Source of the DNA: a virus
Direction: 5' to 3' (one strand)
IMG/VR virus record: IMGVR_UViG_3300012001_000023
Coordinates: 1 to 35,793 of that record
DNA length: 35,793 nucleotides
The position numbers and the translations under genes were made by a program. Position 1 is the stretch's first letter. Every line of letters starts with the position of its first letter. The notes beneath the pieces were generated by a model. The model made no database searches, had not been told where the DNA came from, and saw nothing but the letters and a program-made list of their open reading frames with translations. This document shows, one piece after another, positions 5,029 to 28,781 of this stretch.

Positions 5029-5649
5029 TTACAGAAGCCACATGGGGCTACTTTGAAGAAGGAACTGCTTGTACCGTCCTCCGCTGTATGCACACCACCA
5101 ATTTATATGCCCGAGTTTGTACATCTTTATCATCCACTCGACTGCCTTATCAGGATTCGCAAGGACATATTCTACTGATGGGAAGTCAGCACCTACTCCG
5201 ATGTGGAATCTATCGTTTATCTGGCAAATCCCCCAGTCGGTAGAACCAACAGTTCCATCAGCACGTCGATTGATATTCTTCGCCGTGTTGTAGAACTCAC
5301 TTTCGCCCATTATCACGGAGCAAATGATGTCTTTCGGCATGTGCATTACGCCATCTACATCGACTGTCTTTTCAAATGGAAGCCCTGCATTATCGCAAAG
5401 CACCCGTACTGAATGGTAGGCGTGCTGCGGAGTATCGAATAGGAGCACTGTAGGAGCCTCTACAACAGGCAAAGTGGTATGAGTTATCGTCTCGGGGGCT
5501 ACAGGCGGCGTACCAGGGGTAGGTACAGATGCCGGAACGTAAGGGAGTTTGGGGGTCGAGGTGATTGAATCGGTGGATGTCATTGGGTACAATTTTAGCA
5601 TAATCGCGTCGATAAGTTTCCCGAGGAAGGTGAGTAGGTTTTGTATCAT
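5029..5649 (-). CDS. Lytic transglycosylase/lysozyme-like lysin with N-terminal membrane segment, 206 aa
   Basis: The ATG at 5649 overlaps the stop of the HNH gene (ATGA), which decides the start over one 21 bases upstream. Residues 1-21 form a hydrophobic segment, then a Pro/Thr-rich linker runs to about residue 70. The catalytic domain follows: MGESEFYNTA with likely catalytic Glu116, STDWGICQIND (136-146), and a C-terminal WWCAYSGGRYKQF. The WGICQIN motif is characteristic of lysozyme-like transglycosylase folds. It may be membrane-anchored or secreted and release host peptidoglycan. Two lysins in one cluster is unusual for a genome of this size. Confidence 0.75.
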   Translation of the reverse strand: MIQNLLTFLGKLIDAIMLKLYPMTSTDSITSTPKLPYVPASVPTPGTPPVAPETITHTTLPVVEAPTVLLFDTPQHAYHSVRVLCDNAGLPFEKTVDVDGVMHMPKDIICSVIMGESEFYNTAKNINRRADGTVGSTDWGICQINDRFHIGVGADFPSVEYVLANPDKAVEWMIKMYKLGHINWWCAYSGGRYKQFLLQSSPMWLL

Positions 5650-6035
5650 ACAGAGGAAGGATACACCCATTTGTCAGTCTCCCATGTCGGCCTATTCTGC
5701 ACCTTCTTGAGCCAGTACGACGCGTCCACTACCACTGTTTCATTAAGTGATTTATAGTTTTGCAAATGTCCGACAAGTCGGTGGCAATTACTCTCCATTC
5801 CTTCACAGAGCGTGATGAGGTTGCCCAAATTTGTTTCCATCGAAGGCATGGTCGCAAAACTTTGTTTGTGGTGCACTTGCAGGTACTTATCTCGTCCACA
5901 CGCTTCGCAAGTTGGATGTGTCTTTAGATATTCAGCACGAACGGACGGCCACTGGTTAGAACGTGCCGCGCCAAAGGTACGGTTTTGGAAGAGCGAAAGG
6001 AAACGAAGCCAGAGGACGTAGAGGTATTCAAACAT
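5646..6035 (-). CDS. HNH endonuclease, 129 aa
   Basis: The protein has a basic, partly hydrophobic N-terminus and a clear HNH core: CEACG (Cys43, Cys46), LQVHH (His55-His56), NLGNLITLC (Asn72, Cys77), and NCHRLVGH (Cys84, His85). The Cys pairs bind zinc and the HH/N/H residues form the beta-beta-alpha metal finger that cuts DNA. In many phages such genes work with terminase, but this one sits in the lysis block, so it could also be a free-standing homing-type nuclease. It overlaps both neighbours by a few bases. Confidence 0.85.
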   Translation of the reverse strand: MFEYLYVLWLRFLSLFQNRTFGAARSNQWPSVRAEYLKTHPTCEACGRDKYLQVHHKQSFATMPSMETNLGNLITLCEGMESNCHRLVGHLQNYKSLNETVVVDASYWLKKVQNRPTWETDKWVYPSSV

Positions 6036-8322: not shown

Positions 8323-11046
8323 CTATGCATTCTGTCCTACGATGAAGCCATCGTAGGTATCAGCCCCTGTTCTTATGAATCCAAAAGTGTCTCTCTTGTT
8401 CAGTGTTGCGGTGAGTGTTGGTGCTGCACCTCCTGCCCAGCGAACTGTCGCGAACCACGCAGTGATAGTTGACACTGTAGTACCACCTTGAAGAATTGAG
8501 ACGATGAATGGCTGATTGTTTGTTGCTCCTGTAATCGTAAACGTGATAGCTGTACCAGAGGCGTTGCCAGACACGATGTGCATATTGTTTGAAGTACAAT
8601 TAAGTGCCACGGTCTGTGCGCCTGAAGCAGGGGCGTAGGTTGCTCCTACGGTGTCTCTTCCTGCTTCTGTTACTTTGCCAGTCATTGTGCCTCCTGCGAG
8701 AAGTAGCTTTGTCTGTACACCTCCTACTGTTGGCTCATTCGTACTTTCAATATCTGTAGCCCAGAGTTTTGTCATTCTAGTACCTGTTACTCCGAGGATA
8801 CCTGCTACCACTGAAGCTGCGGGAAGTCCTGTGGTGTTGGTGAGGACACCAGAAGCAGGAGTGCCGAGGGCTGGGGTGGTGAGGATGGGAGAGGTGAGGG
8901 TCTTGTTAGTGAGGGTCTGTGCCGTCGTTTGGTCTACTGTGACCGCTGTATTTATAGCGATTGAATTACCTGTGATTGCAATACCATTTCCAGCAGTGAA
9001 AGAACCTTGCCCAGCGGTCTGAACAAAAGTAAGAGAAGTAGTCCCCATTGTTGGAGCAATAATTCCGTTGTATGCCCATGTAGTAGTTGAGAGAGTATTC
9101 CCTGCGGTGACGAACAGAGAATCGCCAGTGTTTATTTGAGAGCTTTGATTGAAGTCAGTAGCACGAGTAAGAACGTAGACTACGAGTGCTGTTCCTAGAG
9201 TTGTGACCGTGTAAATACCATTGTTTGCTGTTGTGACTTCGTTTTTTACGAGGATTCTGTCTCCGAGGGCTACTGCGACCCCGTCCACACTCAAAGCTCC
9301 TACCGCTACGCCCGTAAGAGTTGCTCCGACACCTGATGACCCGTTGCTATAAGTATTTGTAGGAAGTGCTGTGATAGTTGCAAGCCGTGCTGCTTCTTTG
9401 AAGTCTTGCCCGAGAATTGCCGCGTCTACATACGCGGTGGTAGCTACCTTTGTCGAGTTGTCTGCTGGTGCTTGAGTCGTCGCGGTAGAAGAACCAAGGA
9501 CTGCGGTAGTGAGAGTTGGGCTTGTTGCAAAGACGGCCGAACCACTTCCTGTTTCGTCAGTGAGTGCTGTTGCGAGATTTGCAGAAGTGAACGAGCCAAG
9601 AGAAGTAGCATTTCCTGAAGAAGTAACTGCGCCAGTGAGGTTGGCATTGGTCGTCACGGTCGCCGCGTTGCCTGTAGTGTTCTGATTGAGAGTCGGGAAG
9701 TCTCCTGCTACTGCGATAGATGGGACTCCTGTAGTTGTTGTGTTTTTAAGAATACCTGTCGTAAGTCCCGCTAGAGATGTTCCGTTTATCTTTGTGACTG
9801 TGGCAGTAAGTACTCCTGTGCTACCAGAAGCAGTAGCGTCTCCTGTAATACTTATAGTCTGGTCACCTGTGTTGGTGCCACTGTTCGTACCCGTGATATC
9901 GGAAGTCATCGCCACCGTTCCGTCTTTGTCGGGGAAAGTCCACGTCCTAGCAGCTGTTGTGGCATTCGTTAAGAAGTTTATGAACGTGTTTGCGGCGTTC
10001 TTGAAGTTTATCTTGAAAAGAGTGAGTCCTGAGTAGCCACCTGTTGCGTCTTTACCAGACGTGTATTGAAGATTCGCTGTATCAGAAAGGCCTGTAGAAG
10101 CGATAGCGATGTTTGCAGAACCGTCAAACGAAGTCCCAGCAATAGTCCTAGCGGTTGCCAGCTTAGGTGCTGAAACGATTGTAATAACAGGTGTTGTCGT
10201 TGTGGTTGCTACGGTTGCGTTAGCATCGGCAGAGGTGACTGAGGTAACGGTACCTGTTCCCGTGACAACGGCATACTTCAATCCTGTTGGTTGTGTAGAA
10301 TCTGCTGTGAGGACTTGACCATCTGTACCGACTGGAAGACGAGCGTCTACTGTAGAGTGCGTGAAAATATCACCTTTAGTAGTAAGAGGGGAAGCACCGC
10401 CAGAGACAGCAATGTTTATAGTCGCATTATCATCTGCACCAGTTGTTGTAATCGTCGCTCCTGTGAAGTTTAGAGCTGGTGCGCGTCCTACGGGTACGCC
10501 AGCATTTTTAACAAGAAGTTGATTCGGGCCGCCCATCTGTACACTTGCACGAGCGTTACTCGCCATTGTCTTTTCATGTCCAGAAAGTCTATCTTCAAGT
10601 CCATCGACTGCTCCGAGTTTCAGTTTAGTCTTTGATTTGTGGATTTTGGCGACAATATCTTCTGGCTTTAGAAGTGTGCCGTCCCTGCCGTCTACGCCAT
10701 CTCGCCCATCCTTACCATCTCGCCCATCTTTTGGAATCGGGAAATCTAGTCCAGCTACTGGAGTACGCCCGTCTTTCCCATCTTTAGGTATCTTAAAATC
10801 AACTCCTGCAATTGGAGTATGTCCATCGAGTCCATCGAATCCGTCCCTTCCGTCTTTTGGAATCGGAAAGTCTACACCAGCAACAGGAGTTTTCCCGTCC
10901 CTGCCGTCCGCCCCTCTCTCGCCACGCATCGCATCAAAGAACTTCTTATGTGCGTCTTCGTGCGCCTTAGATTCTGTATCTTCCTTTTTAGCAGGAGATT
11001 TAATAAACGACTCTAGTGGAGGTCGTGTGTCTTTAGCTTTAGCCAT
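8323..11046 (-). CDS. Tail fibre protein with collagen-like repeats, 907 aa
   Basis: Residues about 40-130 contain Gly-X-Y collagen-like triplets, including three copies of TPxAGxDFxIPKDGxDG. The middle carries repeats common in phage fibres ([35 protein letters not shown]). The last 200 residues form a Thr/Ala-rich beta-structured end. Trimeric fibres of this kind recognise host surface polysaccharide or protein. It is the first gene behind late promoter A (motif 11070-11082), with its ATG exactly 36 nt from the start of the motif and no Shine-Dalgarno sequence. Confidence 0.85.
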
Positions 11047-11083: not shown

Positions 11084-14000
11084 CTAGTTACCGTGGGCTT
11101 CGTTCCATATGGAGGTGAGTTGGGATTTGGTTTTGATTTGGTCTACTGAAAAGGCAATAATATTGTTTGATGGATTTTTCGTTGTCCACGGATGATAGTT
11201 GTCTTTTATATTCTTGAAGACAATTCCATCGTATCCTTCTTTTTTCGCTTGTTCTATCGTCTTTTCAAGAGAGATATTCCACTCACCTTTTGCAATATCT
11301 ATTACCTTTGGCTTATTCAGTGTAACCGTTCTTTCTACAACCATTGGAACAGAGTTTTGACTATCAAACGCAGGTTTGTCGGAATAGGATTTCGCAACTC
11401 TTGCATCATCTGTGAAAGAAAGTCCATCGTAAACCCCCTTTCCAGTTTTGAACCCGCCACCAGTAGTCCCATTCAATTCGTTCCACAAAGTATTATCTGG
11501 TGTTAAATTGGGTGCGTCCTTGAAGTAACCTTTTTGATTCGGATTAAACTCCTCCGCAAATCTCGCGTCAGGTGTCCCGTGATATACAGTTACAGTTATT
11601 GGCTTACCGTCCTCGGCAACTTTTAATTTACTTCGCGCAAATTCAATATTAAGACCTGAACCTTTAATATACTCCTCCGCAGTCTTATACTTCTGTGCTT
11701 CGGCGGTGAGGGGGTCTTTAGGTGTTATCGGGGCTGTACGGGCAGATTTAGTATTAGGAACATACTTCATCTCTCCTGTCTTTAGATTTTTAACATACTG
11801 GTCGCCTGTTTTTGGATTGACCGTAGTATTGGTCGCTTCCATATTCTTCGTTTCGTTTAATCCAAGAGTAGATTCTCGTGCGCTTGTGGGGAGGGCGATA
11901 GTCTGACCTGGAATGGCGTTAGGGTTTCCTTCTTTGAGTGCTAGCTGTCCTGCGTTTTTACCTTGTAGATAGTCCTGTATTTCCTGCTCTGAATAGCCCG
12001 ATTGACGAGCTGCGTTTATATCGAAATTGCTCTGCTTAGCGAGAGCGTTTAGGTCTACTGTCTTGAGTTGATTTGATTCACCCAGCGCGGAGCCATCATT
12101 GACAGCACCACTACCGCCGCCATTATTCCCAAGACCTGACTCTGAAAGACCGCCGCTAAGACTATTAGTATCACGGGTAAGATTAGTTCCATTACCGCCG
12201 ATGCTATCATTTCCACCTGGAATTGTCAATCCCTGCTTTTGCGCTTCTGCCGCGATTGCCGCACCTCGTTTTATACCAAGTCGCATGAACGCTTGACCTG
12301 TATCTGACGCGAGGAACTTACTCGCACCTGCCATACCGACATCTGCCCCGATGAGTTGCAACCCTCCAACGACATCTCCTGTAAATATCTTCCATGCTCC
12401 TGCGGCGAAGATGCCACCCTCTGCGAAAGGTTTAAGTCTAAGTGCTTGTTTTACAAGATACTGGTCGGAAGCACCCTTAGAATAATCAAGAAGTTTCTGT
12501 GTACCCTCTGAGAGTGTTCCGAGGTCTTTAATCTGCTGTATCTCAGGTGCTCCTGCGCCGAGAATTGCCTGTACCTTGTCATCACGAGTACCGAAGCCCC
12601 ACTTCTTAAGTGCTGAGTTAATTTTAGCAGGAGTGAAGTTACCTGTGTTCGGGTCTTTCGCTGCGTCAAATATGTTCTGTAGGAAGTTTGCTTTTATATC
12701 TGCCGCGCCCTGTTCTCCTGCCATTTCCATGATTCTAGGAATATCACTCGTCGCCATTGTCGGACGGATAAGAGATTTCACTATCAAATCCTGTTGTCCG
12801 TTCTCTACAAGTTTTTGTACCTTTCGAGCATAGGCGGTACTGAGTGCTCTATATCCATCTGCCGCGCTCGCATTTGCTGAATCGTAGAGTTCCAAGAGTC
12901 CTGGCTTACCTTGAACCTTAAGAGTCTGTCGTGTGTCGTCTTTCAATGCACCATAGAGTCCTTTGAGTGTGTTCCCTATAGAACCTGCCTCGGGGTCGCC
13001 AAATGCTTTAGCGTTCTTTTCTCCGACTGATGATAGGACATCTTTGAGTGTGTTGAGTGTAGGGGCTTTGAATCCATTTGCACCATTCAAGACATCGAGT
13101 TTGTCCTGAAGATATTTAAGTCCTGTAGTATCACCAGTGCTTTTCATCTTTTCTATGGCATCACTAAGAAGCTGAGTTGAGTTGCCAGTCTGCGCGGCAA
13201 CATCTCCACCAAGAACTTCTCTATAAGTATTGAAAAGAGCATCGGTCTGAGCTTTCATCGCATCTCCGTATGCTTGCGCTCCTTTAGCGATATTCTCACC
13301 AGCAGTTGCGAGGTCTGTTGTACCCATTGTCTCTTTTACTGTAGTCGCCGCGAGGTCTTGCATTTGAGTCTGTGCTTTCATTAGTCGTGCGGCGAATTGC
13401 GTATCTCCAGCTCCAGTAGCGGCAAGAGCGTCTCCGAGGTTTATGAACTGGTTATTTGTATACGCTGATGGTGAGAGTTCGATACCTGTTCGAGCAGTTG
13501 CACCAGCGAGTTCAGAGTTCTGAGCACCACCGAATACCATATCGCCAATCTTCCCAGCCGTTGCAGTTATAGGTGAAGCAAGTGTCCCAGCGAGAGAAGC
13601 CGCGCCAGAATTGAGTGCACTTATTCCTGTATCAACTGCTGACCGAGCCGCGCCGACTTGTGGCATTACATTGAGTCCCGTACTTGCGTAATTAGCAGCA
13701 TTCTCTGCGGCTAGTGCGGCTTTACTTTCTGTAGCCATATCAACTGCGCTCGCTCCCATCTTTGCCAACCCTTCACCACCTGCTGCGAGTCCCAGAATGT
13801 CTGTTATCACTCCAGCAGGGTCGTTACCGAAAGCATTTGCAACCTTTCCGAGATTCCCATAACGAGTTGCGAGAGCATCTCCGATAGCGTTTGCGGTCTG
13901 TTGGCTTGAATCGGGATTCCCCGCGTTCATTCCTGTTAGATTTTCTGCACCACCGATTATTCCCTGCCCGACAGCACCTACAGTATTTATAGGGTGCGCC

Positions 14001-14803
14001 ACTGCACCGACAATTCCACTTGCGAGTCCGTAAAGTGAAGATGGGACGTTTCCGAGAGTCTTTAGACCTCCGACAAATAGATTGTCATTCGCTGATACAG
14101 GGAAAGAGGCACCGTAAGTAGGAAGTGCGCTTGAAGTCTGTGCCGCTGGCGCACCTGTAGTCTGTCCAGAAACAGTTTGTTGCAGCGCACTTGTAAACTG
14201 TTGCGCTCTTTGACCGCTGATATGAATAAACTGCCCTGGATTATTGGGGTCTGGTTTTGCTCCGTTCCACAAAGCATCTATTGAATCTGGCGTGAGACCT
14301 TGATTCTTGTATGCAAGTATTTGATGGTATGCGACATAGTTCTGATTCTCTGGAGTCATAGGAGCGTTTGCGCTTCCGAGAAACTTTGCAGCTGCGGTTT
14401 GCCAATTAGCTGGTGTCTGTCCTTGCGGTACAGGTTTGCCACCGTTATTCCATTGAAATGCACCCATAGATGCCCCGTTATCGCCAATGGCATTGTAGTT
14501 CATAGTTCCACCTGTCTCCACCGATGCTATGGATTTCATGACTGACACAACACTAGGGTCTAATTGAGTCCCATCTGATAGCGTTACATTCCCTTGAGTA
14601 GAAGAAGGCTGTACGGGGCTTGCAGGGGCTTGTGAAGTGGCTACAGGAGCCTGTGGAGCGACTGGTTGCGGAGCTGGCTGAGGAGCAGTTAACATCGTCA
14701 ACCCAGTCGGGGTCGATTCTGCCATAGATGGTTGCGCCTGAATGTTATTCACTGTTCCGTTTGTTGGTGGAGCAGAAGGATTATTTTGTGCGAGTGGCGG
14801 CAT
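11084..14803 (-). CDS. Internal virion protein: lytic transglycosylase plus ADP-ribosyltransferase-like domain, 1239 aa
   Basis: The N-terminus (1-75) is Pro/Gln/Ala-rich. Residues 80-210 hold an SLT-like domain with SIASVETGGT (likely catalytic Glu96) and GASMGAFQWN. A long Ala/Gly-rich, mostly helical region with possible membrane-interacting stretches follows. Residues 1071-1239 resemble ADP-ribosyltransferases of the phage polyvalent-protein type: VYHGTPD, GLSFTDDARVAKSY, YDGIVFKN and a final IIAFSVDQIK. A likely course is ejection with the DNA, opening of peptidoglycan by the first domain and modification of a host target by the last. The large middle part and the position between neck and fibre genes fit an ejection protein of podovirus type. 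Confidence 0.75.
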   Translation of the reverse strand: MPPLAQNNPSAPPTNGTVNNIQAQPSMAESTPTGLTMLTAPQPAPQPVAPQAPVATSQAPASPVQPSSTQGNVTLSDGTQLDPSVVSVMKSIASVETGGTMNYNAIGDNGASMGAFQWNNGGKPVPQGQTPANWQTAAAKFLGSANAPMTPENQNYVAYHQILAYKNQGLTPDSIDALWNGAKPDPNNPGQFIHISGQRAQQFTSALQQTVSGQTTGAPAAQTSSALPTYGASFPVSANDNLFVGGLKTLGNVPSSLYGLASGIVGAVAHPINTVGAVGQGIIGGAENLTGMNAGNPDSSQQTANAIGDALATRYGNLGKVANAFGNDPAGVITDILGLAAGGEGLAKMGASAVDMATESKAALAAENAANYASTGLNVMPQVGAARSAVDTGISALNSGAASLAGTLASPITATAGKIGDMVFGGAQNSELAGATARTGIELSPSAYTNNQFINLGDALAATGAGDTQFAARLMKAQTQMQDLAATTVKETMGTTDLATAGENIAKGAQAYGDAMKAQTDALFNTYREVLGGDVAAQTGNSTQLLSDAIEKMKSTGDTTGLKYLQDKLDVLNGANGFKAPTLNTLKDVLSSVGEKNAKAFGDPEAGSIGNTLKGLYGALKDDTRQTLKVQGKPGLLELYDSANASAADGYRALSTAYARKVQKLVENGQQDLIVKSLIRPTMATSDIPRIMEMAGEQGAADIKANFLQNIFDAAKDPNTGNFTPAKINSALKKWGFGTRDDKVQAILGAGAPEIQQIKDLGTLSEGTQKLLDYSKGASDQYLVKQALRLKPFAEGGIFAAGAWKIFTGDVVGGLQLIGADVGMAGASKFLASDTGQAFMRLGIKRGAAIAAEAQKQGLTIPGGNDSIGGNGTNLTRDTNSLSGGLSESGLGNNGGGSGAVNDGSALGESNQLKTVDLNALAKQSNFDINAARQSGYSEQEIQDYLQGKNAGQLALKEGNPNAIPGQTIALPTSARESTLGLNETKNMEATNTTVNPKTGDQYVKNLKTGEMKYVPNTKSARTAPITPKDPLTAEAQKYKTAEEYIKGSGLNIEFARSKLKVAEDGKPITVTVYHGTPDARFAEEFNPNQKGYFKDAPNLTPDNTLWNELNGTTGGGFKTGKGVYDGLSFTDDARVAKSYSDKPAFDSQNSVPMVVERTVTLNKPKVIDIAKGEWNISLEKTIEQAKKEGYDGIVFKNIKDNYHPWTTKNPSNNIIAFSVDQIKTKSQLTSIWNEAHGN

Positions 14804-14806
14804 ATT

Positions 14807-16387
14807 TCATTTTCCAGTCAATAGGTTTGCCCAGGAACTTCCTATAGAACCACCTGTTGATACTGGCTGCTGCGGAGCACCAGCGAAGTTGGACGTGATG
14901 CTGTTTATCTGATTGCCGATTTGTGAAATAGCAGTCTTCCCATAGGTATGGATTGCCGTACCGAGTTGACCCATTTGACCTGGGCTAAGATTGTCTGGGA
15001 TAAGATTCGCCGCTTCTTGCGTGCTACCAGCAACCGAACCACCACGCGAGATGACTGTTGAAAGATTTGTACGGAGTTCCTGAATACCCGCTTTGAAAGC
15101 CGCCATAGCACCTGGAGCCATTACACCTGCGTTTATTTTATCTTGAATCTGGTTTACAAATGGAACACCGCTTTGATTGAGTCCGTACTGATTCATAAGA
15201 TTAGTCACATTTGAGAACACTGAGTCAACCGTATTGAAAGCAGTTTGAGTAGTGTTGTACGAGCTGACCTGAGTAGAAAGAGCGTCTGAATTAGCTTTCC
15301 CAAGAGACGCCGCAAGACCGCTCACCAGACTTATAGAACCGTCGGAGTTTTGTGTAGTGATGCCTGCACTGTTTGTCTTGTCCCAAATACCTGTCCCACC
15401 ACCTGGGGTTGTGTATGTTGAAAGGTACTGTGCTCGATACTGTGGAGAATTGGATACTGCGTTTTGAGCTATCTGTTGATTCTGTTGGGGTGATAATTTC
15501 GGGTCGTATGCAGGTATATTTGCGCCTTGATAATAATCCTGATTCTTACTATACGAGTTAATTGCATTAACATTTACAAGACCACCAAGTCCACTGTAGG
15601 TTTCCTGACCTGTAACGGGAGAGACGAGCGAAGAGCCTGGAGCGACTGACTGTGGAGAATATGCACTGATAAGTGTCGAGAGTGGATTGACCTGATTCGC
15701 ATAGGCATTTTGTGCACCCTGATACCTTAAAGCATCGGCGGCTTGTTGTGCGGCGTTCTGTTGCTGGTTCTGCGATATGACTGTTTGAAGGTCGCCCATG
15801 GTTGCTCCAGGAAGGGCATCTCGGTTATTTATTTGATTGCCAATCATCACATTTCTCGCTTGGTCTGCCTGTACTGCTAGTCCCGCTTGTTGTTGGGCAA
15901 GATTATAGGGAGAGTTCCCACGTAACGCCGCCATTTGCTGGATGTATTGTGCAAGTTGGTTCTGTTGTCCATTTATATCAGAAATGGTCGGAGAAGAGGC
16001 CAGATGCCCTGTAGTCGCGCCTGAAGTATCGACATTGAAACTAGTGGGACTTGTTACGTTTCCACCTGACGCTGATGCTGTGCCACCATTTGAAAGTTGT
16101 GTTGGTGAAGAAAGGTAGTCTGAAAGACTCCCTGTGGTACCCGTAGGATTCTGCGAACCGAATACTGCTGGAGTTCCTGTACTTGTCTGTGGTAGTGGGA
16201 GCGAGGGACTCGAATTACCTTGTGGGAATGCAGTATTAAATGTAGAGGCCGGTAGACCAGTTGCGAAACCGAGGGCGGCATTACCCGACGCTGGTGCTGG
16301 CGCGGGAGCTGAAGTTACACTTGGAGCCAGAGAAATAGGAGCAATTGTCCCTGCATTTCCTCCCATTGATAGATTTAGACCTGCCAT
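14807..16387 (-). CDS. Gln/Ala-rich internal virion or tail protein, 526 aa
   Basis: The start MAGLNLSMGG at 16387 lies exactly 36 nt from late promoter B and has AGGA 5 bases upstream. A longer reading would translate the promoter itself. The protein is low-complexity at the N-terminus, with helical, Gln-rich stretches (QNQQQNAAQQAADALRYQGA) and a helical C-terminus. No domain is recognised. Its position before the SLT ejection protein suggests a second ejected core protein, comparable in role to the internal proteins of short-tailed phages. Confidence 0.6.
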   Translation of the reverse strand: MAGLNLSMGGNAGTIAPISLAPSVTSAPAPAPASGNAALGFATGLPASTFNTAFPQGNSSPSLPLPQTSTGTPAVFGSQNPTGTTGSLSDYLSSPTQLSNGGTASASGGNVTSPTSFNVDTSGATTGHLASSPTISDINGQQNQLAQYIQQMAALRGNSPYNLAQQQAGLAVQADQARNVMIGNQINNRDALPGATMGDLQTVISQNQQQNAAQQAADALRYQGAQNAYANQVNPLSTLISAYSPQSVAPGSSLVSPVTGQETYSGLGGLVNVNAINSYSKNQDYYQGANIPAYDPKLSPQQNQQIAQNAVSNSPQYRAQYLSTYTTPGGGTGIWDKTNSAGITTQNSDGSISLVSGLAASLGKANSDALSTQVSSYNTTQTAFNTVDSVFSNVTNLMNQYGLNQSGVPFVNQIQDKINAGVMAPGAMAAFKAGIQELRTNLSTVISRGGSVAGSTQEAANLIPDNLSPGQMGQLGTAIHTYGKTAISQIGNQINSITSNFAGAPQQPVSTGGSIGSSWANLLTGK

Positions 16388-16423
16388 AATCCTATTGTGT
16401 ATTAGAGTGCTGTACCAATACAA
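16385..16423 (-). promoter_or_regulatory. Late promoter B (leaderless type)
   Basis: TTGTATTGGTACA (16423-16411, minus strand) directly follows the TAG stop of the upstream gene. The ATG is 36 nt from its first base. The -10 position holds CACAAT, the weakest of the set. AGGA lies between the -10 and the ATG. Confidence 0.65.
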
Positions 16424-19016: not shown

Positions 19017-19487
19017 CTACTTAACGCCCTCGCAAATCGTCTGCCAGCCGACTTTGAAGAACGCATACGGTGAGTCCTCTACAATCTCAGTTTCAAAGTA
19101 TTTCCGCATCTGTAGAAGCAGAATATCCTTATTGAATATCTGGTGGTGGTTCTGTAATGCTCGGTCATCGGCTCCGAAGACTACTTGATTGAGTAGGTCG
19201 AGCGATATTTCTCCCTTACCATATAGCTCAAGAGCCTTTTCAGTGTCAGGAACCGTCACTGTTATCTTTCCGCCGACTTTTAGGACTCTGTGCCACTCTG
19301 CAAGCACGTTCTCATTGTTGGCAAAGTGTTCGAGCAGGTGTCCAGCGTATATCTCATCAACCGAATCGTTCTCATAAGGAAGCGCGGAAGCGTCAGCAAC
19401 TACGTCAGGTTTAACCGCAGGGTCGCGGTCTATATTTATGAAGTCTCTGAGCGGTAAATCGTTGCACCCTATATTTATACGAATCAT
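19017..19487 (-). CDS. SAM-dependent methyltransferase (type 11-like), 156 aa
   Basis: The SAM-binding motif is INIGCNDLPLRDFINIDRDP (residues 4-23), followed by DASALPYENDSVDEIYAGHLLEHF, the usual motif II-III region of small class I methyltransferases. It overlaps the stop of the glycosyltransferase gene by 4 bases, so the two are probably made together. A sugar or glycan substrate is plausible from context but not shown. Confidence 0.8.
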   Translation of the reverse strand: MIRINIGCNDLPLRDFINIDRDPAVKPDVVADASALPYENDSVDEIYAGHLLEHFANNENVLAEWHRVLKVGGKITVTVPDTEKALELYGKGEISLDLLNQVVFGADDRALQNHHQIFNKDILLLQMRKYFETEIVEDSPYAFFKVGWQTICEGVK

Positions 19488-20227
19488 GGGTTTATCCTAT
19501 TATCTTTTAAGATTTTCTCGAACAAGAATCTGATTGGCGAGAATCCCCACTTGCTTTCAAAGTAAGCCTCATTCTCTTTTATCGCTACACTCTGTTTTCC
19601 TTTTTCACCCTCGGAATATCGTGTCGCACCTTCGACATGGAAGAACTGCAATCGTGGAGTAATTATAAGCCTCTTGCCCGCCTGTTTCCACCGCCAGAAA
19701 AGGTCAATGTCTTCTATGCCACCATGCTTATACGCGGGGTCGTAGAGTCCGTGCTCTCGAAGTAACGAAGCGTGGACAGTAAAGAATCCTCCGCTGAACA
19801 TAAAGTCATCGAGCTTCCCACCTTCGGAGACATATCGGTCTGTCCTTTTGGGGTAGTCTCTTGTCCTATAGCCCAATCCTGCAACTGCGTCTGCGTTGAA
19901 CTCGTCAAAGCACCTGAGCACCTCTTCTTTCCAGCCTTTATTTGCCTCTATATCGTTGTTTGCGTAGGTAATGAGACATTCATCCTTTTCATTGTCTAAG
20001 ACCCACTGTAAGCCAAAATTGGCACTCCCAGCGAACCCTCTGTTGGTTTCTAGCGGTAACCATACGTCCGAGAGTCGTCTTAACCTATCACTCTTGCGTG
20101 GAGAGCCATCATCTACCGAAACTACGATGCAATCTGCCGTGTCTTTGAAAGACTGAACAGCGTTTATCGCCAGTTGCTCTATCTGAGGTGAAAGTATGTA
20201 ATGATTTATGACAACGTAGTGTTTCAT
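19484..20227 (-). CDS. GT2-family glycosyltransferase, 247 aa
   Basis: This is a GT-A fold enzyme with SVDDGSP (37-43), NRGFAGSANFG (62-72), the metal-binding region ANND (89-92), and GGIEDIDLFWRW (169-180), where the ED pair is the usual catalytic position. It would transfer a sugar from a nucleotide donor. It starts inside the stop of a 55-residue gene (ATGA) and overlaps the methyltransferase. Located in the middle of the structural genes, it may decorate capsid or tail proteins or modify the host envelope. Confidence 0.85.
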   Translation of the reverse strand: MKHYVVINHYILSPQIEQLAINAVQSFKDTADCIVVSVDDGSPRKSDRLRRLSDVWLPLETNRGFAGSANFGLQWVLDNEKDECLITYANNDIEANKGWKEEVLRCFDEFNADAVAGLGYRTRDYPKRTDRYVSEGGKLDDFMFSGGFFTVHASLLREHGLYDPAYKHGGIEDIDLFWRWKQAGKRLIITPRLQFFHVEGATRYSEGEKGKQSVAIKENEAYFESKWGFSPIRFLFEKILKDNRINP

Positions 20228-20391
20228 GCAAGATTTAGTGGCGGTTTACGCTTCCCTGGTACGAATCCGTTTGCTACTGCCCTCTTCCAGCTATTTGGGT
20301 GTGTCCCCCATGTTCCGCTCAGTGTAGGACATGAGTGTTTATGGCTGTTAGGGTGTTGCCCTAGGGGATATTTCTTTGTATCAGTAGTCAT
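20224..20391 (-). CDS. Small basic protein, 55 aa
   Basis: The ATG at 20391 lies within the last codons of the large glycosyltransferase gene and the TGA overlaps the next ATG, so it is enclosed in a coupled chain. The product is rich in Lys, His, Pro and Trp (NSWKRAVANGFVPGKRKPP at its end) with a single Cys. No family is recognised. Confidence 0.55.
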   Translation of the reverse strand: MTTDTKKYPLGQHPNSHKHSCPTLSGTWGTHPNSWKRAVANGFVPGKRKPPLNLA

Positions 20392-22756
20392 TTTCTATCA
20401 TTTGATTTGATAAGTATTTTGCACCCAACATAAATACGTTATTCCACTTACGAGCGATGTTCGTCCAAGAGAAAGTATCAGTCCAGTCGTCTACTTTCCC
20501 ACTATCCATCTTCACAGGGTTCTTGAGCTGCGACACGACAGCATCCACCCATTTCTTTTGTGCTTCTTCATCATCGAGTCCGAAAGTAAACTGATATGGT
20601 TTTATCCAGTCGTCTTTTGTTTTCTTTGAGTGAACACGAGTACCGAACTTATTTGTCTCCGCGAGCGCACCAAAGTCTGTTGTAACGGGGTAGCAATTAG
20701 CGGCTTGGGATTTCTTCACGCTGATGCAGTCAATCTCTGCGAACTCTGTTGGATAGACGAAGACAGAAGCCTTCTGATACAACTTCCCGACTTCTTCTTG
20801 TGAGATTCTTCCAAGAGTTTTAATCCCTACCTTATCCATTTCTTTAATCGTCTCATTCATCCAGTCCATCATCTTTAGATTCCCTGCGTAGGCGTTCTTG
20901 AATCCGTCCCAGCCGTATGCCCAGTGGAGTTTAGCCTTTGGTACTCGCTTCTTTACTTCCTTGAAGAGTTTAGGAAGAACATCGAGACTGCGGTCAGGGC
21001 TTGAGGTGTTGATGATTAACATGGGGTCTTTCTTTTCACTTGTAGGATAGGACTGGAACCCGTTACCAATCACCGTGATTTTATCGTCGGGGATATCCGG
21101 ATAGATAGAGCGATGGAACTTCGTTTTGACGAATACTTTATCTATCTTCGCTAGACGCTCCGGCGTGAACTCTCCAGCCGTAGTCATGTCATGTAGGTCA
21201 ACGTAGAGTCTCGTGGTGTTTATATCGTAGTCTGCAATCTTTGGCATACGCCAGAGAATAGTTACGTCTTGTTTGTCGCGTGTGTTCCATTCCCAGAATG
21301 GTTTGTATGTTACACCACCGCTTTTGACTTCCTTATGCCCGCAGTTGTTGTACACCGTTACATTCCATCCGAGTTTCGTCCATTCTTCTGCCAAGTGGAC
21401 GACTGCTTCCTCCGAGCCACCGATGCCCTCGGTCTTAAACGTCTCACCGTTCCATCTCTGAGCAGTATTTCCACAGTAATAGACCAAATCCTTTCCTGTT
21501 GAGGTAGTTTTGATGAACTTTGTGTTGCGGATAACACAAACCGCTGGATGTGAACGTAAATCCACTGGGAGTTTATCCATTTCTTCCTTGAGACGCTTCT
21601 TGCTCTTGATTTTCCCCAGTGCTTTCACCTTTTCGAGAGCTTCACCGAGCTTCTTCTTGTCTGCTTTCCCTTCACGAACCATTTTCTTTAGACTTGCATC
21701 CTTCGGGTAAATCTTCGCGCACCCTTCGAGTAACGGAAGCATCAAATCAGGTCGGTTCTTGTTAAAGTAGACCTTCGCCAAGAGCATCATCGGGTTGTAG
21801 TCGTAGTCCCGAGGGTTATACACAATCATCTTCTGAAACTGTGGACGGCGTTTGAGTCCTGTAATGGAGTAGTATTCTGCTTTCTCCATGTTCCCTATAT
21901 TGAAGTAGAGTCTTGCGAGAGTGAAATACGCATCAGGCAACTCAGGTTTCAATCCAATAGCAACAAAGAGATTCTTAATCGCGTTCATCGCGTCTCCTTT
22001 TCGATTGTAGACCTCGGAAAGTCTCTGGTATGCCAAATACTTCTCATCATCTGAGAGTGAGCGTGTGAGGAATAGCTCAAATGATTCTATTGCTTTCACA
22101 AAGTCATTCACCATGAGATACGCATTACCAAGATTCCACTGAGAACGTGGGTCGTCTGGTAGTTCTTTAGCCGACAACTCAGCGATGACGACGTTACGCT
22201 CTGCACTTTCTTTAGAACGTGCTTCCGTTGTTATGTGCAGTCGCTCGATACCGCTAATGAGTTTGATATTCACTTCACGATTCTCTTGTAGGTCTTCGTG
22301 GACACGACCTTTCCAAGTAACACACCCGTTGTTCTTCACTATCATTGTCTTGCGATGGACAACCGTCGGGCGTTTGAACTCGTCCCAGTCGTAGAGATAT
22401 TCAACTCCAAACCCGTCTACATTAGGATTGCTTTCGATGGTTGATTTTAGTTTCTCAAGTCCACGCCACATATCGTCTGAGTCGCTCCACATGATATGTG
22501 TATAGTCAGCAGGGACTTGTGAGAAGTTGAAGTTACGCGCTGCGCTGAAATCCTTTATCCATTCAAAGTCTGAGAGATGCCCCTTGAAGTGTTTAACTAC
22601 TTCGGCTACGGCTTTGTTCGATGGTTTATTAGGTTCGTGAGTCCTTGTAACGAAAATACCGTCAACGTGCTTCGACATATTCGCCAGACAGCGATTGAGA
22701 AGTAGTGCTTCTTCGTCTGTACCTTTTACTATCAAACAAAGAGCAATCTTAGTCAT
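20381..22756 (-). CDS. Fused glycosyltransferase: GT2-like domain, TPR repeats, GT4-like domain, 791 aa
   Basis: Residues 1-190 are a GT-A domain (IALCLIVKGTDEEALL; DFSAARNF; IMWSDSDDMW at 88-97, the Asp-rich metal site). Residues about 200-400 are TPR-like helix pairs (SQWNLGNAYLMVNDFVKAIE; DAYFTLARLYFNIGNMEKAE). Residues about 430-770 are a GT-B domain with GIGGSEEAVVHLAEEW, NGF near the centre, and a late SVFVYPTEFAEIDCISVKKSQA that matches the nucleotide-sugar-binding E-x7-E region of GT4 enzymes. The fusion suggests two successive sugar transfers on one glycan or protein. It is the longest gene of the glycosylation island. Confidence 0.85.
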   Translation of the reverse strand: MTKIALCLIVKGTDEEALLLNRCLANMSKHVDGIFVTRTHEPNKPSNKAVAEVVKHFKGHLSDFEWIKDFSAARNFNFSQVPADYTHIMWSDSDDMWRGLEKLKSTIESNPNVDGFGVEYLYDWDEFKRPTVVHRKTMIVKNNGCVTWKGRVHEDLQENREVNIKLISGIERLHITTEARSKESAERNVVIAELSAKELPDDPRSQWNLGNAYLMVNDFVKAIESFELFLTRSLSDDEKYLAYQRLSEVYNRKGDAMNAIKNLFVAIGLKPELPDAYFTLARLYFNIGNMEKAEYYSITGLKRRPQFQKMIVYNPRDYDYNPMMLLAKVYFNKNRPDLMLPLLEGCAKIYPKDASLKKMVREGKADKKKLGEALEKVKALGKIKSKKRLKEEMDKLPVDLRSHPAVCVIRNTKFIKTTSTGKDLVYYCGNTAQRWNGETFKTEGIGGSEEAVVHLAEEWTKLGWNVTVYNNCGHKEVKSGGVTYKPFWEWNTRDKQDVTILWRMPKIADYDINTTRLYVDLHDMTTAGEFTPERLAKIDKVFVKTKFHRSIYPDIPDDKITVIGNGFQSYPTSEKKDPMLIINTSSPDRSLDVLPKLFKEVKKRVPKAKLHWAYGWDGFKNAYAGNLKMMDWMNETIKEMDKVGIKTLGRISQEEVGKLYQKASVFVYPTEFAEIDCISVKKSQAANCYPVTTDFGALAETNKFGTRVHSKKTKDDWIKPYQFTFGLDDEEAQKKWVDAVVSQLKNPVKMDSGKVDDWTDTFSWTNIARKWNNVFMLGAKYLSNQMIENDY

Positions 22757-23489: not shown

Positions 23490-24416
23490 TTACGCGGCGT
23501 TCAAGAAACCGTCGGCAAAGAAGTTCGAGTCCTGGTTGCGAGTCTCAAGAGTGAGTGCCGCATATACAGCCCGAGGGATGTATGCGCCACCGACCGAGAG
23601 GTCAGTCAACACAGTAGGAGCTTCGAGGAATGCCACTTTGAGCTTCTCTGGGCGAATTGCCAAGATACGACCCGTAGCGTCACCACTCTGCTGGACGTAA
23701 CGGTGCTTGTGTATCGTGAGTGTACCCATCGACGTTTCGTAGGTGGTTACAGTCTTAACGATACCCTTGATGTCAGGCGAGTTAACGACAACGTTCGTCT
23801 TTGCGATGAAGTTATCAGTAACGCGCTTCATGATGCCACCGACGAAAAGGTCAGTAGCAACATCACCGTTAGAGTTCGACCAGTTTGCTTGCATGAGGCC
23901 ATCAAGAACGGTTGCGCTAAACACAGTGCCAGAAGTCTGCGACGTATGGTTAGTGCTGAGGCTAGTAGCGGCAATAATACCGTTCATAGCCTGTGTCGTT
24001 CCTGAAATACCAGATGCCAAAGCACCACGGACAAGGTCGAACTCTACACCGTTGGTGAACTCCATCATGCCCTTTGCGAGCTGACGGTCGAGTTCATTCT
24101 CACCAGTGTAGTGCTGGACTGCTGTCTGTGGGCGAGTCACGCGGATTGGCACGGCAACTTCCTGCACGAGGTTCGTGAGGAGGGTTGGAGTCGTGCGAGC
24201 TGAGTAGGTGAAGTCTGCACCTTGCTCAACAGCAAGACTCGCTGCCGTTGCGAGGGTATCAACTCCGTAGGAGTGAATCATCGCAATAGCCTTCGTCTTG
24301 CCAAGCATAGCGTAAATACCATCTTCACGAGCCGAGATGATTTCAACGGATTCGCGGACAATGTCCGTCTCAATCATTGAATCACCGTAGGTCTGAAGGA
24401 CGTTTGATACAGCCAT
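23490..24416 (-). CDS. Major capsid protein, 308 aa
   Basis: The gene lies just after the scaffold gene and ends at a strong terminator, which is typical for the most abundant virion protein. The sequence (MAVSNVLQTYGDSMIETDIV; AVEQGADFTYSARTTPTLLT; LAIRPEKLKVAFLEAP) has the Ala/Thr/Val-rich character and an N-terminal helix as in HK97-fold capsids. The RPEKLKVAFLEAP segment matches the late strand (P-domain) of many podovirus-like capsid proteins. There is no Shine-Dalgarno sequence before the ATG. Confidence 0.8.
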   Translation of the reverse strand: MAVSNVLQTYGDSMIETDIVRESVEIISAREDGIYAMLGKTKAIAMIHSYGVDTLATAASLAVEQGADFTYSARTTPTLLTNLVQEVAVPIRVTRPQTAVQHYTGENELDRQLAKGMMEFTNGVEFDLVRGALASGISGTTQAMNGIIAATSLSTNHTSQTSGTVFSATVLDGLMQANWSNSNGDVATDLFVGGIMKRVTDNFIAKTNVVVNSPDIKGIVKTVTTYETSMGTLTIHKHRYVQQSGDATGRILAIRPEKLKVAFLEAPTVLTDLSVGGAYIPRAVYAALTLETRNQDSNFFADGFLNAA

Positions 24417-25400: not shown

Positions 25401-27278
25401 TTATCTACCAGTCATGGCGTGAGTGTTAATCTGTTGCGCTTGAATCCTTCCTGGCTGTGGAGTAGGAAGCGGTGCGCCCTGTGATGCCATAGAACCTGGC
25501 ATTGGAACCTGTTGCTGTCCACCTTGCACCATATTCTGCTGTGGCTGTGGTGTGGCTTGCGGAGCCGAGAGTCCCATGAGGTCAAAGGTCTGTTTGATGA
25601 TTGCATCCTTGAACTCAGGTGCGAAGTTGAGCATGGAGATGAGGTTTTGGATGGTAACCGAGACATCCATTTCGTCATTGGTGACAAAGGTAACGGTTTC
25701 GAGTTCGTCTGCGATAACATCCTTGGCGAGTTCGAGGAATAGGTCGCCTTTCATCAGTTTATCCTTCGCTGATTGCATAGCCGTAGCGATTTCCTGCTGA
25801 GAAGGTAAATAGCCTTTAGCATAGTGGTCATCGAGGGCTTCCATTGTCTTTGAAAGTACAATGCGGTCTGCCAACTCCTTGAATGAGTCATCATCTGCGG
25901 TGATACGGACAAGTTGTCCGACTGTAAGCTCTTTAGCGATGATAGGAAGTGCATGGCGGTCTATCCAGCGTCGTAGGAACTCCCCAACACCACTCTTAAT
26001 GATTGAGAAACCACTCTTTGCGTTCTGATTCTGAATCGCGGCGTTCGTAGCTGGCGTAGAAGCTGGAAGAGCTTCGCCCGTAACCACTTCAAAAGCATTT
26101 GTAAGTCTTTCTGAGAGCGAGTTGATGACGTTTTCATCAGTGTATGAGCCTTGTGAGACTTCTTGGACAACAAACTGTTGCAGGTCGTCCATGTTGTTTA
26201 GCACCACAGCACCATTTGACGGCAACTGTGAGAGCATCTGAGGCGTAACACCTGCACCTTTCTTAATCTTGAACAGTCCTAATTGAGATACACGAGAACG
26301 GTTGATACGGATATTGAAAACGATGTTGGCGTAGACCTGAAGTGTGAGGACTTTCTCTGCAATTCCACGACCATACCAACGGTTCGGGACACGGGTGTAC
26401 CATGCTTCCTCGTAAGGTTTGAGTGAGTTACCCTCTGCGTCGGTTTTATTATTCAATTCGATAAGATGGCAACGCTCTTTGCCTGGAGAATCCACTCCTG
26501 AGACGACGATATGCCCAGGAACTTCGGTTGTCTCGTCTTCAGTGAGTCCCGTAATGAGAGATTTAGGAATCATGCCCCAGCACTCATAGAGGTCGAGCAT
26601 CTTTACGTTTGAGTTGATTTGAGACGCACGATTCATCCAGTATGGGTCTGTTCGAGGGAGTCCCTCGGTTACGTTCTCGCCAATCTTCTCGGTATTCATC
26701 CATCCCGTCATTTGAGCAATCTGCTCTGGGAACATTAGTGAGCGTTCAGTGAAGCGATATGCCTCTTGAATCGAAGGAGTCGTAGGGTCGATGTAGATGT
26801 TTAGAAGGTCAACATACTGCAACACCATTTTGCCGTTCTCTTCGTAGGTCTTCCACACAGCAGTTCCGTCGATAGCCAACATTCTCTCAAAGTCATTGAG
26901 CTTCTGTTCAAAGTAAATCTTCCCTAGTTTGTCTTGGACTGCGGCGCGAGTAACGTCGGTAAGCTCATATCCATTCGGAGTCTTGGAACGGAAACCAATG
27001 TCCTTCTGGTCGAGGTCTATGTTCTTCACAACCGCTTCGACGTTGATTTCCGTAAGTGGATACCAAATCTTCTCAAGTCCCGTGAGCTGGTCTTTAGGAT
27101 TATCAAATACTCCGTAGTAGTTCTTACGAAGAATACGAATGAGCTGGCGCATCTTAAACGATACGCGGTCAGTAATAAAAGCGTTGGAGATTTCCCATCG
27201 GGTCTTTTCGCCTTTGATGATTTCAATAGCTCGCTGCTCGATAGTGGTCGAGGACAGTTTCTTTTTGCTTCTTGCCAT
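25401..27278 (-). CDS. Portal protein, 625 aa
   Basis: The position after the large terminase and before scaffold and capsid, and the length of about 600-700 aa typical for podovirus portals, support the call. Features include a helical N-terminus (MARSKKKLSSTTIEQRAIEI), YVDLLNIYIDPTTPSI and WYGRGIAEKVLTLQVYANIV, which fit the wing and stem region, and a Gln/Pro-rich end. The ATG at 27278 is exactly 36 nt from promoter D, has no Shine-Dalgarno sequence, and the longer upstream reading would translate the promoter. It forms the dodecameric DNA channel at one capsid vertex. Confidence 0.8.
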   Translation of the reverse strand: MARSKKKLSSTTIEQRAIEIIKGEKTRWEISNAFITDRVSFKMRQLIRILRKNYYGVFDNPKDQLTGLEKIWYPLTEINVEAVVKNIDLDQKDIGFRSKTPNGYELTDVTRAAVQDKLGKIYFEQKLNDFERMLAIDGTAVWKTYEENGKMVLQYVDLLNIYIDPTTPSIQEAYRFTERSLMFPEQIAQMTGWMNTEKIGENVTEGLPRTDPYWMNRASQINSNVKMLDLYECWGMIPKSLITGLTEDETTEVPGHIVVSGVDSPGKERCHLIELNNKTDAEGNSLKPYEEAWYTRVPNRWYGRGIAEKVLTLQVYANIVFNIRINRSRVSQLGLFKIKKGAGVTPQMLSQLPSNGAVVLNNMDDLQQFVVQEVSQGSYTDENVINSLSERLTNAFEVVTGEALPASTPATNAAIQNQNAKSGFSIIKSGVGEFLRRWIDRHALPIIAKELTVGQLVRITADDDSFKELADRIVLSKTMEALDDHYAKGYLPSQQEIATAMQSAKDKLMKGDLFLELAKDVIADELETVTFVTNDEMDVSVTIQNLISMLNFAPEFKDAIIKQTFDLMGLSAPQATPQPQQNMVQGGQQQVPMPGSMASQGAPLPTPQPGRIQAQQINTHAMTGR

Positions 27279-27314
27279 GTTGGTACTGTATATGTCGAAC
27301 GTGTACCAATACAA
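27276..27314 (-). promoter_or_regulatory. Late promoter D (leaderless type)
   Basis: TTGTATTGGTACA (27314-27302, minus strand) begins immediately after the TAG stop of the large terminase gene. TACAGT occupies -12 to -7 relative to the portal ATG at 27278. No ribosome-binding site separates them. Confidence 0.7.
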
Positions 27315-28781
27315 CTAGGAGTAGTCTGTTGAGTACAAACCAAATCCTTTTGGACTCTCTTCTTCTGCACGTTCGGCTATAAATCTCTGATACTGCTCTG
27401 CGTCGATAACATCGTCGTGCGCTCCAATCGGAAACTTTAAGAGCTGTTCTTCGAGGTCATCACATTCGCCTTCGATGTGGTAGATACTTCCTGCTTCATA
27501 CGGAGCAACAAGAGACTCAATACGAGACTCTTTCATAACTCCACCGTGTTTCAACGGGACGATATACGGATATTTCCCACGCTTCCTGCATTCCTCTTGG
27601 AAGAAAGGTTCTATGGCTTGTGTGTATGCTGTAGTCTCCACGCCTATCTTTTCAAATCCTTCGTCATGAAGTACGAATAGCAAGTCGATAAGCCCTCTTG
27701 GAGATATACGGTATTTCTTTCCCGACAAGTGCCAGAAGTTCTCTGAATTGACATAGTTTCTAACAACACCTGTATCGTCTGAAGTGGCATCTTTTGAAAG
27801 TGCAGTATCTATTGTGGCAAACTTCCTCGTATTCATGTCGTTCACTTGAGCGCGAGTCTTGTACTTGAACATACTCTTCTTAAACTTCTGCGCTTCACTT
27901 GCTATAGGTTCGTTGAGCATTTCTGCTGAATAAACTAACGAGCCAAGCTGTCGCTTCTTATCCTCAAGCGAGACTTTCTTTCCATCCATATCGCTATCGA
28001 ACATAACGTACTTTGAAGGCCATGTTGGTAGTCCGTCTTTCTCCACTGGGACATTACGAACCTTGAGTCTCGGGTCTGTCTTGGCACGTTCAAAGAGAGT
28101 AGCGACACTTCCATACTCAGTAATGAAGTTTCCCAAGTAAAGGATTATCGCCTGTGAATCAAGTCCTGCCTTAAACTCGTCTATGTGGCTTATAACGCTC
28201 TGTGTGTGAGCCTTTGAGTCCTTAGTCTCATTCGTCTCGAAGTCGTCTAGGAGAAGGAAGTCAGGGCGCTGCGATCCATGCAACCGACCTCGAACACTCT
28301 TACCAGTCGAGTGTGCCTCGACTCGGACACCGTTCGTCGTGACAAAGTTGTTGATACGCTTCTGCGTTACTTCATCGCTGTCTCGTTTAGCATTGAATAG
28401 CTCCCCGAAGTCTGCGAGAAGTTTCCCGTTAGTCTGAAGTGAGAGGACAACATCGAATAGGATGCGCTCGGCGTTTGTTATGGAAAATGAGTCGACGTTT
28501 AGATAGCGGCGTTTGTTATATACGATGAGCCACACTAGAAATACTTTAGCGATACTTGTCTTAGCTGATTCACGGAAGGCTATCAGTGCCAGTTCCCGGT
28601 ACTCTCCTAACATGAGCTTTGCAATATCATCGAACCATTCGTAGTGAAATGGGGCGAAAGGATACTTCGCATACTCAGTGAAGTAGTACACAAAGAATAT
28701 AGAAAAGTCCTTTGAGCAGATGTATGTGCGCTCTGCTGGAGTTCCGCTAATCGCTTTATCCAGTAGTTTCCTGTTCAACAT
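27315..28781 (-). CDS. terL: Terminase large subunit, 488 aa
   Basis: The ATPase domain shows a deviant Walker A, FRESAKTS (69-76), preceded by ELALIA, and Walker B FLLLDDFE (175-182). The nuclease domain has ATIDTALSKD (Asp324 as the first metal ligand) and GAHDDVIDA near residue 460. This is the packaging motor that cuts concatemeric DNA and pumps it through the portal. The protein starts within the end of terS (26-base overlap), as is common. The R-E-S-A-K-T-S variant is of the type seen in podovirus-like large terminases. Confidence 0.92.
   Translation of the reverse strand: MLNRKLLDKAISGTPAERTYICSKDFSIFFVYYFTEYAKYPFAPFHYEWFDDIAKLMLGEYRELALIAFRESAKTSIAKVFLVWLIVYNKRRYLNVDSFSITNAERILFDVVLSLQTNGKLLADFGELFNAKRDSDEVTQKRINNFVTTNGVRVEAHSTGKSVRGRLHGSQRPDFLLLDDFETNETKDSKAHTQSVISHIDEFKAGLDSQAIILYLGNFITEYGSVATLFERAKTDPRLKVRNVPVEKDGLPTWPSKYVMFDSDMDGKKVSLEDKKRQLGSLVYSAEMLNEPIASEAQKFKKSMFKYKTRAQVNDMNTRKFATIDTALSKDATSDDTGVVRNYVNSENFWHLSGKKYRISPRGLIDLLFVLHDEGFEKIGVETTAYTQAIEPFFQEECRKRGKYPYIVPLKHGGVMKESRIESLVAPYEAGSIYHIEGECDDLEEQLLKFPIGAHDDVIDAEQYQRFIAERAEEESPKGFGLYSTDYS

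What the first reader, a model, noticed from the sequence alone, without database searches (positions are those of the whole stretch)
11084..14803. Virion protein fusing a lytic transglycosylase to an ADP-ribosyltransferase-like domain
Residues 80-210 look like an SLT domain (Glu96), and residues 1071-1239 show VYHGTPD, SFTDDARVAKSY, YDGIVF and a final AFSVDQIK, the order found in ART domains of phage polyvalent proteins. A cell-wall enzyme and a host-modifying enzyme on one ejected protein would deliver a toxin with the genome, in the way T4 Alt is injected.
Basis: partly seen in the sequence, partly recalled or inferred. Interest (0 to 1): 0.72.

Follow-up and report, generated by a model that had tools for sequence, protein, structure and literature searches.

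The report
Phage ejection protein with ADP-ribosyltransferase tail
A short-tailed phage's probable DNA-injection protein, which carries a cell-wall-cutting enzyme at its front end, has an ADP-ribosyltransferase domain attached to its back end that its relatives lack, so it may deliver a host-modifying enzyme with the phage DNA; this is a new example of the known 'polyvalent protein' strategy.

Summary
The gene at 11084-14803 (on the minus strand, 1239 aa) has an SLT/lysozyme-fold domain with an invariant Glu96 near its N-terminus and a PF18760 'ART-PolyVal' domain at residues 1064-1225. Profile, homologue and structure-model evidence agree on both. Syntenic relatives in other uncultivated phages share the SLT domain and the ~870-residue body but stop at about residue 947. 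The window protein adds 292 residues carrying the ART, while the neighbouring genes on both sides stay the same. One relative (L033) instead has a different long C-terminus with a ParB-like motif. The gene lies in the head/tail module of a short-tailed phage, between an ejection-type protein and the fibre gene. The best reading is a T7-gp16-like ejection protein: SLT acts in the wall, and the C-terminus delivers an ART to the cytoplasm. This works like the polyvalent proteins of Iyer et al. 2017, who already reported lysozyme and ART domains in such proteins. It is not an Alt relative (R-S-E clade). Virion packaging, ejection and enzymatic activity are inferred. The window copy has Ser at two aromatic positions otherwise conserved in its subfamily, so activity is uncertain. 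New member of a known kind.

The parts
11084..14803 (-). 1239-aa SLT-body-ART protein (P0001), the finding
   Evidence: single open frame; PF18760 hit; syntenic homologues L003, L008, L010, L033, L034
14174..14566 (-). SLT/lysozyme-fold domain, residues 80-210
   Evidence: homologous to PF01464 members; AF2 model pLDDT 90, Z 11.5 to lytic transglycosylase Cj0843
14516..14518 (-). codon of Glu96, predicted catalytic acid of the SLT domain
   Evidence: invariant in 7 aligned sequences
11963..14563 (-). conserved SLT + body shared with ART-less homologues, residues 81-947
   Evidence: 40% identity over residues 81-947 to residues 57-887 of the 889-aa L010 protein
11087..11962 (-). C-terminal extension absent from homologues, residues 948-1239
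   Evidence: no aligned residues from 961 on in L010 or L008, essentially none in L003; neighbouring genes orthologous on both sides
11129..11614 (-). ART-PolyVal domain, residues 1064-1225
   Evidence: PF18760 E 5e-9; ART-fold matches only among those shown
11579..11581 (-). codon of His1075 (YHGT, strand 1), invariant ART residue
11384..11386 (-). codon of Tyr1140 (A..Y after strand 2), invariant in the subfamily
11228..11230 (-). codon of Asp1192 (GYDG), invariant in both ART alignments
11768..11770 (-). Met1012 preceded by GGAGAG: weak candidate internal start for a free ART fragment
   Evidence: sequence reading only
14807..16423 (-). 538-aa upstream protein, likely partner ejection protein
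   Evidence: orthologues at the same place in L003, L004, L010 (33-35% identity)
8323..11046 (-). collagen-like/fibre protein directly downstream
   Evidence: phrog_8745 and phrog_9017 tail fibre; orthologue downstream in L003 and L010
16716..18149 (-). 477-aa tail-module protein, syntenic in homologous phages
   Evidence: 31-33% identity to L010 and L004 counterparts
23490..24416 (-). major capsid protein, SU10/LUZ24-like short-tailed phages
   Evidence: PF17236 E 3e-39; tblastn to phages such as Bjorn and HTVC106P
25401..28781 (-). portal and large terminase
   Evidence: phrog_332/1216 and phrog_38

Best explanation
The gene encodes an internal, ejected protein of a short-tailed phage that works like T7 gp16. 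During infection the N-terminal SLT domain opens the peptidoglycan, the helical body helps build the DNA conduit, and the C-terminus reaches the cytoplasm. This phage has extended that C-terminus with an ART-PolyVal domain, which would then use NAD+ to ADP-ribosylate a host macromolecule at the moment of DNA entry. Shown here: both folds, the conserved Glu96 and His1075/Tyr1140/Asp1192, and that the ART is an accessory add-on to a body shared with ART-less orthologues in conserved synteny. Inferred: virion location, ejection, topology, catalytic activity and host target.
For: Domain calls: PF18760 and SLT homology plus models. Gene order TerL-portal-scaffold-MCP-(GTs)-tail proteins-P0003-P0001-fibre matches the place of ejection genes and the N-terminal SLT of T7 gp16 (PMC8954989). 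Orthologues without ART end at residue ~947 with the same neighbours. The same ART subfamily lies beside virion/head genes in other contigs: next to a virion structural protein in L022, next to head closure Hc3 in L026, between terminase and portal in L024. It is also in a multidomain polyvalent-type protein, L020. ART and lysozyme domains in injected polyvalent proteins are predicted by Iyer et al. 2017.
Against: No sequence match to the T7 gp16 family (phrog_342) or any characterised ejection protein. No clear transmembrane helices. No relative in 50,697 phage records, so no proteomics can be borrowed. Ser1129 and Ser1148 replace residues that are aromatic in all ten ART relatives, and Asn1214 sits where PARPs have Glu988. 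Most orthologues lack the ART, so it is not needed for ejection itself.
Confidence: 0.6

Rival explanations
1. The C-terminal domain keeps the ART fold but is a degenerate or non-catalytic remnant, retained as a binding or spacer module on the ejection protein.
For: Window-only Ser1129 and Ser1148 at positions that are F/Y and Y in all ten relatives; Asn1214 at the PARP Glu988 position. The Pfam score for the whole protein is just under the cut-off.
Against: All other subfamily-invariant polar residues are kept (His1075, Asp1079, Arg1081, Tyr1140, Asp1147, Gln1149, Asp1192, Asp1201, Tyr1203). The frame is intact, and GC3 equals that of the rest of the gene. The subfamily as a whole has Val/Ile at the Glu988 position, so its absence is not a defect of this copy.
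Confidence: 0.22
2. The protein is not ejected: it is a tail-tip or lysis-associated wall enzyme, and the ART acts only when made inside the infected cell, possibly as a shorter product from an internal start such as Met1012.
For: Two more SLT-like ORFs (4174-4536 and 5029-5670) sit in the adjacent region. Met1012 is preceded by GGAGAG, although the spacing is short.
Against: Those two ORFs look like the lysis genes and leave the SLT of P0001 to entry. P0001 and its orthologues stay fixed between ejection-type and fibre genes. GGAGAG is also simply the Gly-Glu codons.
Confidence: 0.13
3. The fusion is an artefact: a chimeric assembly or merged neighbouring genes.
For: Only one of the homologues carries the ART; the ART segment is the lowest-GC stretch of the large genes.
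Against: A single open frame of 1239 codons. Genes on both sides are orthologous to those flanking the ART-less version. GC3 is unchanged across the junction. Leader and spacing look like other PF18760 proteins.
Confidence: 0.03

Closest known systems
Phage polyvalent proteins with ART-PolyVal/Tox-ART-HYD2 domains (Iyer et al. 2017), e.g. N4-like vRNAP of Roseovarius Plymouth podovirus 1 (CBX87992)
   Same: Same ART family (PF18760); large protein in the virion gene module; combination with a wall-degrading domain already described in the class; predicted injection
   Different: No RNA polymerase, metallopeptidase or LPD detected; only two recognisable enzymatic domains, carried on a gp16-like ejection body; the ART is appended rather than embedded
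T7 gp16 ejection protein (SLT domain at N-terminus)
   Same: Size (1239 vs ~1318 aa), N-terminal SLT, last of the ejection-type genes, before the fibre gene
   Different: No detectable sequence homology to phrog_342; T7 gp16 has no ART
T4 Alt (head-packaged, injected ART)
   Same: Proposed early delivery of an ART with the genome
   Different: Alt is in the R-S-E Alt/VIP2 clade, has no wall enzyme and is a head protein of a contractile-tailed phage
ART-less and ParB-motif orthologues L003, L008, L010, L034 and L033
   Same: SLT domain, body, gene order
   Different: C-terminus ends at residue ~947 or earlier, or (L033) is replaced by other domains

Membership tests
ART-PolyVal (PF18760) / Tox-ART-HYD2 | Profile match over the curated cut-off | tested here: met
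   37.4 bits vs 31.2 for the domain alone; 30.2 for the whole protein
ART-PolyVal (PF18760) / Tox-ART-HYD2 | His in strand 1 | tested here: met
   His1075 in VYHGT, invariant in both alignments
ART-PolyVal (PF18760) / Tox-ART-HYD2 | Tyr in strand 2 | tested here: inconclusive
   The strand position itself is Ser1129. The prototype CBX87992 has Phe there, and its only Tyr between the His and GYDG is in A..Y, which aligns with the invariant Tyr1140. The mapping is my inference
ART-PolyVal (PF18760) / Tox-ART-HYD2 | Asp in strand 5 | tested here: inconclusive
   Asp1192 (GYDG) is invariant in all 18 sequences compared; that this is the Asp meant in the paper is inferred. The PARP Glu988 position is Asn1214
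ART-PolyVal (PF18760) / Tox-ART-HYD2 | NAD+-dependent ADP-ribosyltransferase activity | not testable with these tools
   needs a biochemical assay
Transglycosylase SLT (PF01464) | Direct profile match | tested here: not met
   No PF01464 hit to the window sequence; homologues L005, L006 and L033 do match
SLT / lysozyme superfamily fold | Lysozyme fold with catalytic Glu and GLMQ-like motif | tested here: met
   Z 11.5 to Cj0843, Slt and gp144 also matched; Glu96 and GAFQ conserved
Phage polyvalent protein | Two or more unrelated enzymatic domains in one polypeptide, in a virion-gene context | tested here: met
   SLT + ART in one ORF between structural genes
Phage polyvalent protein | Packaged and injected with the genome | not testable with these tools
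   No isolate or proteomics
T7 gp16 family (phrog_342) | Sequence homology | tested here: not met
   No hit at E<=1; homologues without PHROG hits too
T7 gp16 family (phrog_342) | C-terminal transmembrane helices | tested here: inconclusive
   Only one segment above hydropathy 1.3, at residues 260-278
T4 Alt / VIP2 ART clade | R-S-E active site | tested here: not met
   His1075 instead of Arg, no Glu at the strand-5 position

The most novel reading that the evidence does not exclude
In this group of short-tailed phages the SLT ejection protein is a delivery chassis. Its C-terminus, which the ejectosome places in the cytoplasm, carries exchangeable effector modules (ART in the window phage, a ParB-like module in L033, none in others), so swapping the C-terminus swaps what is delivered at DNA entry.
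Probability: 0.35. Interest if true: 0.62.

Novelty: new member of a known kind. Interest (0 to 1): 0.42.

Why it matters
Comparing orthologues with and without the add-on gives a natural experiment for the polyvalent-protein hypothesis: one ejection body, same synteny, with or without a cytoplasm-facing ART. It would let one test whether an effector can ride on the C-terminus of a gp16-like ejectosome protein, which is so far mostly a prediction. The case itself fits an idea already published.

Tried and rejected
Whole-protein searches found nothing in viral contigs, phages or PDB by sequence, so the domains were searched separately. PF18760 search over the homologous records found no second ART gene there, but these are contigs that may be fragments. 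The genome-contig hit L012 was a chance match in a non-coding frame; it was used only as a handle for a phylum search, which found one strong PF18760 member in 398 genomes, L019. A recent foreign origin of the ART from base composition was considered and not supported: GC falls to 0.41 but GC3 is unchanged. Profile searches of PDB sequences found no ART relative and only weak C-type lysozyme matches. I first took Asn1214 as evidence of a dead enzyme, then dropped that as a main argument because the whole subfamily has Val/Ile there. No literature was found joining 'internal virion protein', 'transglycosylase' and 'ADP-ribosyltransferase'.

Full report
What is there. The window is a 35.8-kb virus record, linear, possibly a fragment. 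ORF 11084-14803 is on the minus strand and codes for 1239 aa without a stop. It lies in a late-gene block read on that strand: large terminase 27315-28781, portal 25401-27314, a scaffold-like ORF at 24439-25017 (assigned by position only), major capsid 23490-24416 (PF17236, E 3e-39), a glycosyltransferase/methyltransferase island, tail-module genes, a 538-aa Gln/Ser-rich protein (14807-16423), the protein of interest, and a collagen-like fibre gene (8323-11046). The capsid protein is related to those of short-tailed phages such as Pseudomonas phage Bjorn and Pelagibacter phage HTVC106P.

SLT domain. Relatives L005, L006 and L033, 41-44% identical over this stretch, match PF01464 over its cut-off. 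In an alignment of seven sequences Glu96, the GA[FY]Q motif and a Trp are invariant. An AlphaFold2 model (pLDDT 90, pTM 0.84) aligns best with the soluble lytic transglycosylase Cj0843 (Z 11.5, 3.3 A, 123 residues), then Slt, phiKZ gp144, MltE and other lysozyme-superfamily enzymes. Foldseek alone was weak. The domain call stands.

ART domain. PF18760 (ART-PolyVal) matches residues 1064-1225 at E 8.7e-7 in the whole protein and 5e-9 in the domain alone, the latter over the curated cut-off. Ten relatives from viral contigs form a clear subfamily; nine of the eleven sequences match PF18760, best E 1.1e-18. A model of moderate confidence (pLDDT 70, core above 80) matches only ART-fold proteins among the top 50 rows of both structure comparisons: PARPs, tankyrases, diphtheria toxin, NatT and MbcT. 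None of the Foldseek E-values passes 0.001 and Z is below 8, so the structure search alone would not be proof. Together with the profile the call is firm.

Active site. Iyer et al. 2017 (PMC5512222) define this clade by His in strand 1, Tyr in strand 2 and Asp in strand 5. His1075 is invariant. In the paper's prototype CBX87992 the only Tyr between the His and the GYDG motif is the one in 'ARDY', which corresponds to the invariant Tyr1140; Asp1192 of GYDG is invariant in both of my alignments. On that mapping, which is mine, the triad is present. However, the window copy alone has Ser1129 and Ser1148 where the ten relatives have Phe/Tyr and Tyr, and Asn1214 where they have Val/Ile and PARPs have Glu988. 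Activity is therefore plausible but not secured.

An add-on to an ejection protein. Orthologues were found in other uncultivated phages: L003 (806 aa), L008 (879 aa), L010 (889 aa), L034 (570 aa), L004 (cut by the contig end) and L033 (1419 aa). Residues 81-947 of the window protein align at 40% identity with residues 57-887 of the 889-aa L010 protein; the ART-bearing stretch beyond has no counterpart in L010 or L008 and essentially none in L003. The upstream 538-aa protein and the downstream fibre gene have orthologues at the same places in L010 and L003. The ART is thus a C-terminal extension inserted without disturbing synteny, which also argues against a misassembly. GC3 is the same on both sides of the junction, so it is not visibly recent. 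L033 has a different long C-terminus containing a ParB-like 'DGNHRATAY' motif that matches the ParB-fold protein SbnI at E 0.0098, though not a Pfam model.

How it most likely works. [quoted passage not shown] The window protein has the same polarity and gene position but no detectable homology to gp16, so I say it works like gp16, not that it is gp16. An ART on its C-terminus would then reach the cytoplasm together with the first phage DNA. The same ART subfamily sits next to a virion structural protein (L022), next to head closure (L026), between terminase and portal (L024), and in a multidomain polyvalent-type protein with helicase and RadC domains (L020). This supports a virion-borne role. 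Packaging, ejection, topology, activity and target are inferred.

Comparison with what is known. Iyer et al. 2017 already describe injected polyvalent proteins in which lysozyme and ART domains occur, including N4-like virion RNA polymerases, and a later survey finds ARTs in about 3% of podoviruses (PMC9503650). The T4 Alt comparison is only functional, since Alt is R-S-E. The find is a new member of a known kind with a tidy comparative setting; the chassis idea is its most novel reading.

Limits. No phage with this protein is in the collection of cultured phage records, so virion content cannot be checked. Orthologue numbers are small (six), from contigs that may be fragments.

Noticed in passing
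4174-4536 and 5029-5670, minus strand: Two further SLT/lysozyme-like ORFs, one over the PF01464 cut-off (E 7e-5), the other weak (E 0.046) with a hydrophobic N-terminus; probably the lysis genes.
   Followed up: partly
19017-22756, minus strand: Island between capsid and tail genes with a methyltransferase, a family-2 glycosyltransferase and a 791-aa glycosyltransferase-TPR-glycosyltransferase fusion; L010 also has a methyltransferase-like and a glycosyltransferase-like ORF there.
   Followed up: no
606-804: Array of about 16 copies of a 12-base unit (GATGCCGCTCGG) inside ORF 405-1052, giving an Ala-Ala-Arg/Trp-Asp repeat protein.
   Followed up: no
L033:5974-10230: Orthologue of the finding with a long, different C-terminus carrying a ParB-like DGNHR motif and an 'EVQSDLFQKG' stretch.
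   Followed up: partly
L027:3880-6381: Protein with three ART-PolyVal domains in one polypeptide (PF18760, E 2.9e-39).
   Followed up: no
L020:1-12441: Open frame of at least 4147 aa with Strawberry-notch-type helicase domains, ART-PolyVal and RadC domains, a typical giant polyvalent protein.
   Followed up: no
L008:5790-7979: The protein upstream of the ejection gene (same place as the window's 14807-16423) has an N-terminal LysM-like stretch matching endolysin PHROGs (E 7.8e-9).
   Followed up: no
11768-11770, minus strand: Met1012, in front of the ART domain, is preceded by GGAGAG; most other gene starts checked lack such a motif. Could be chance from Gly-Glu codons.
   Followed up: partly
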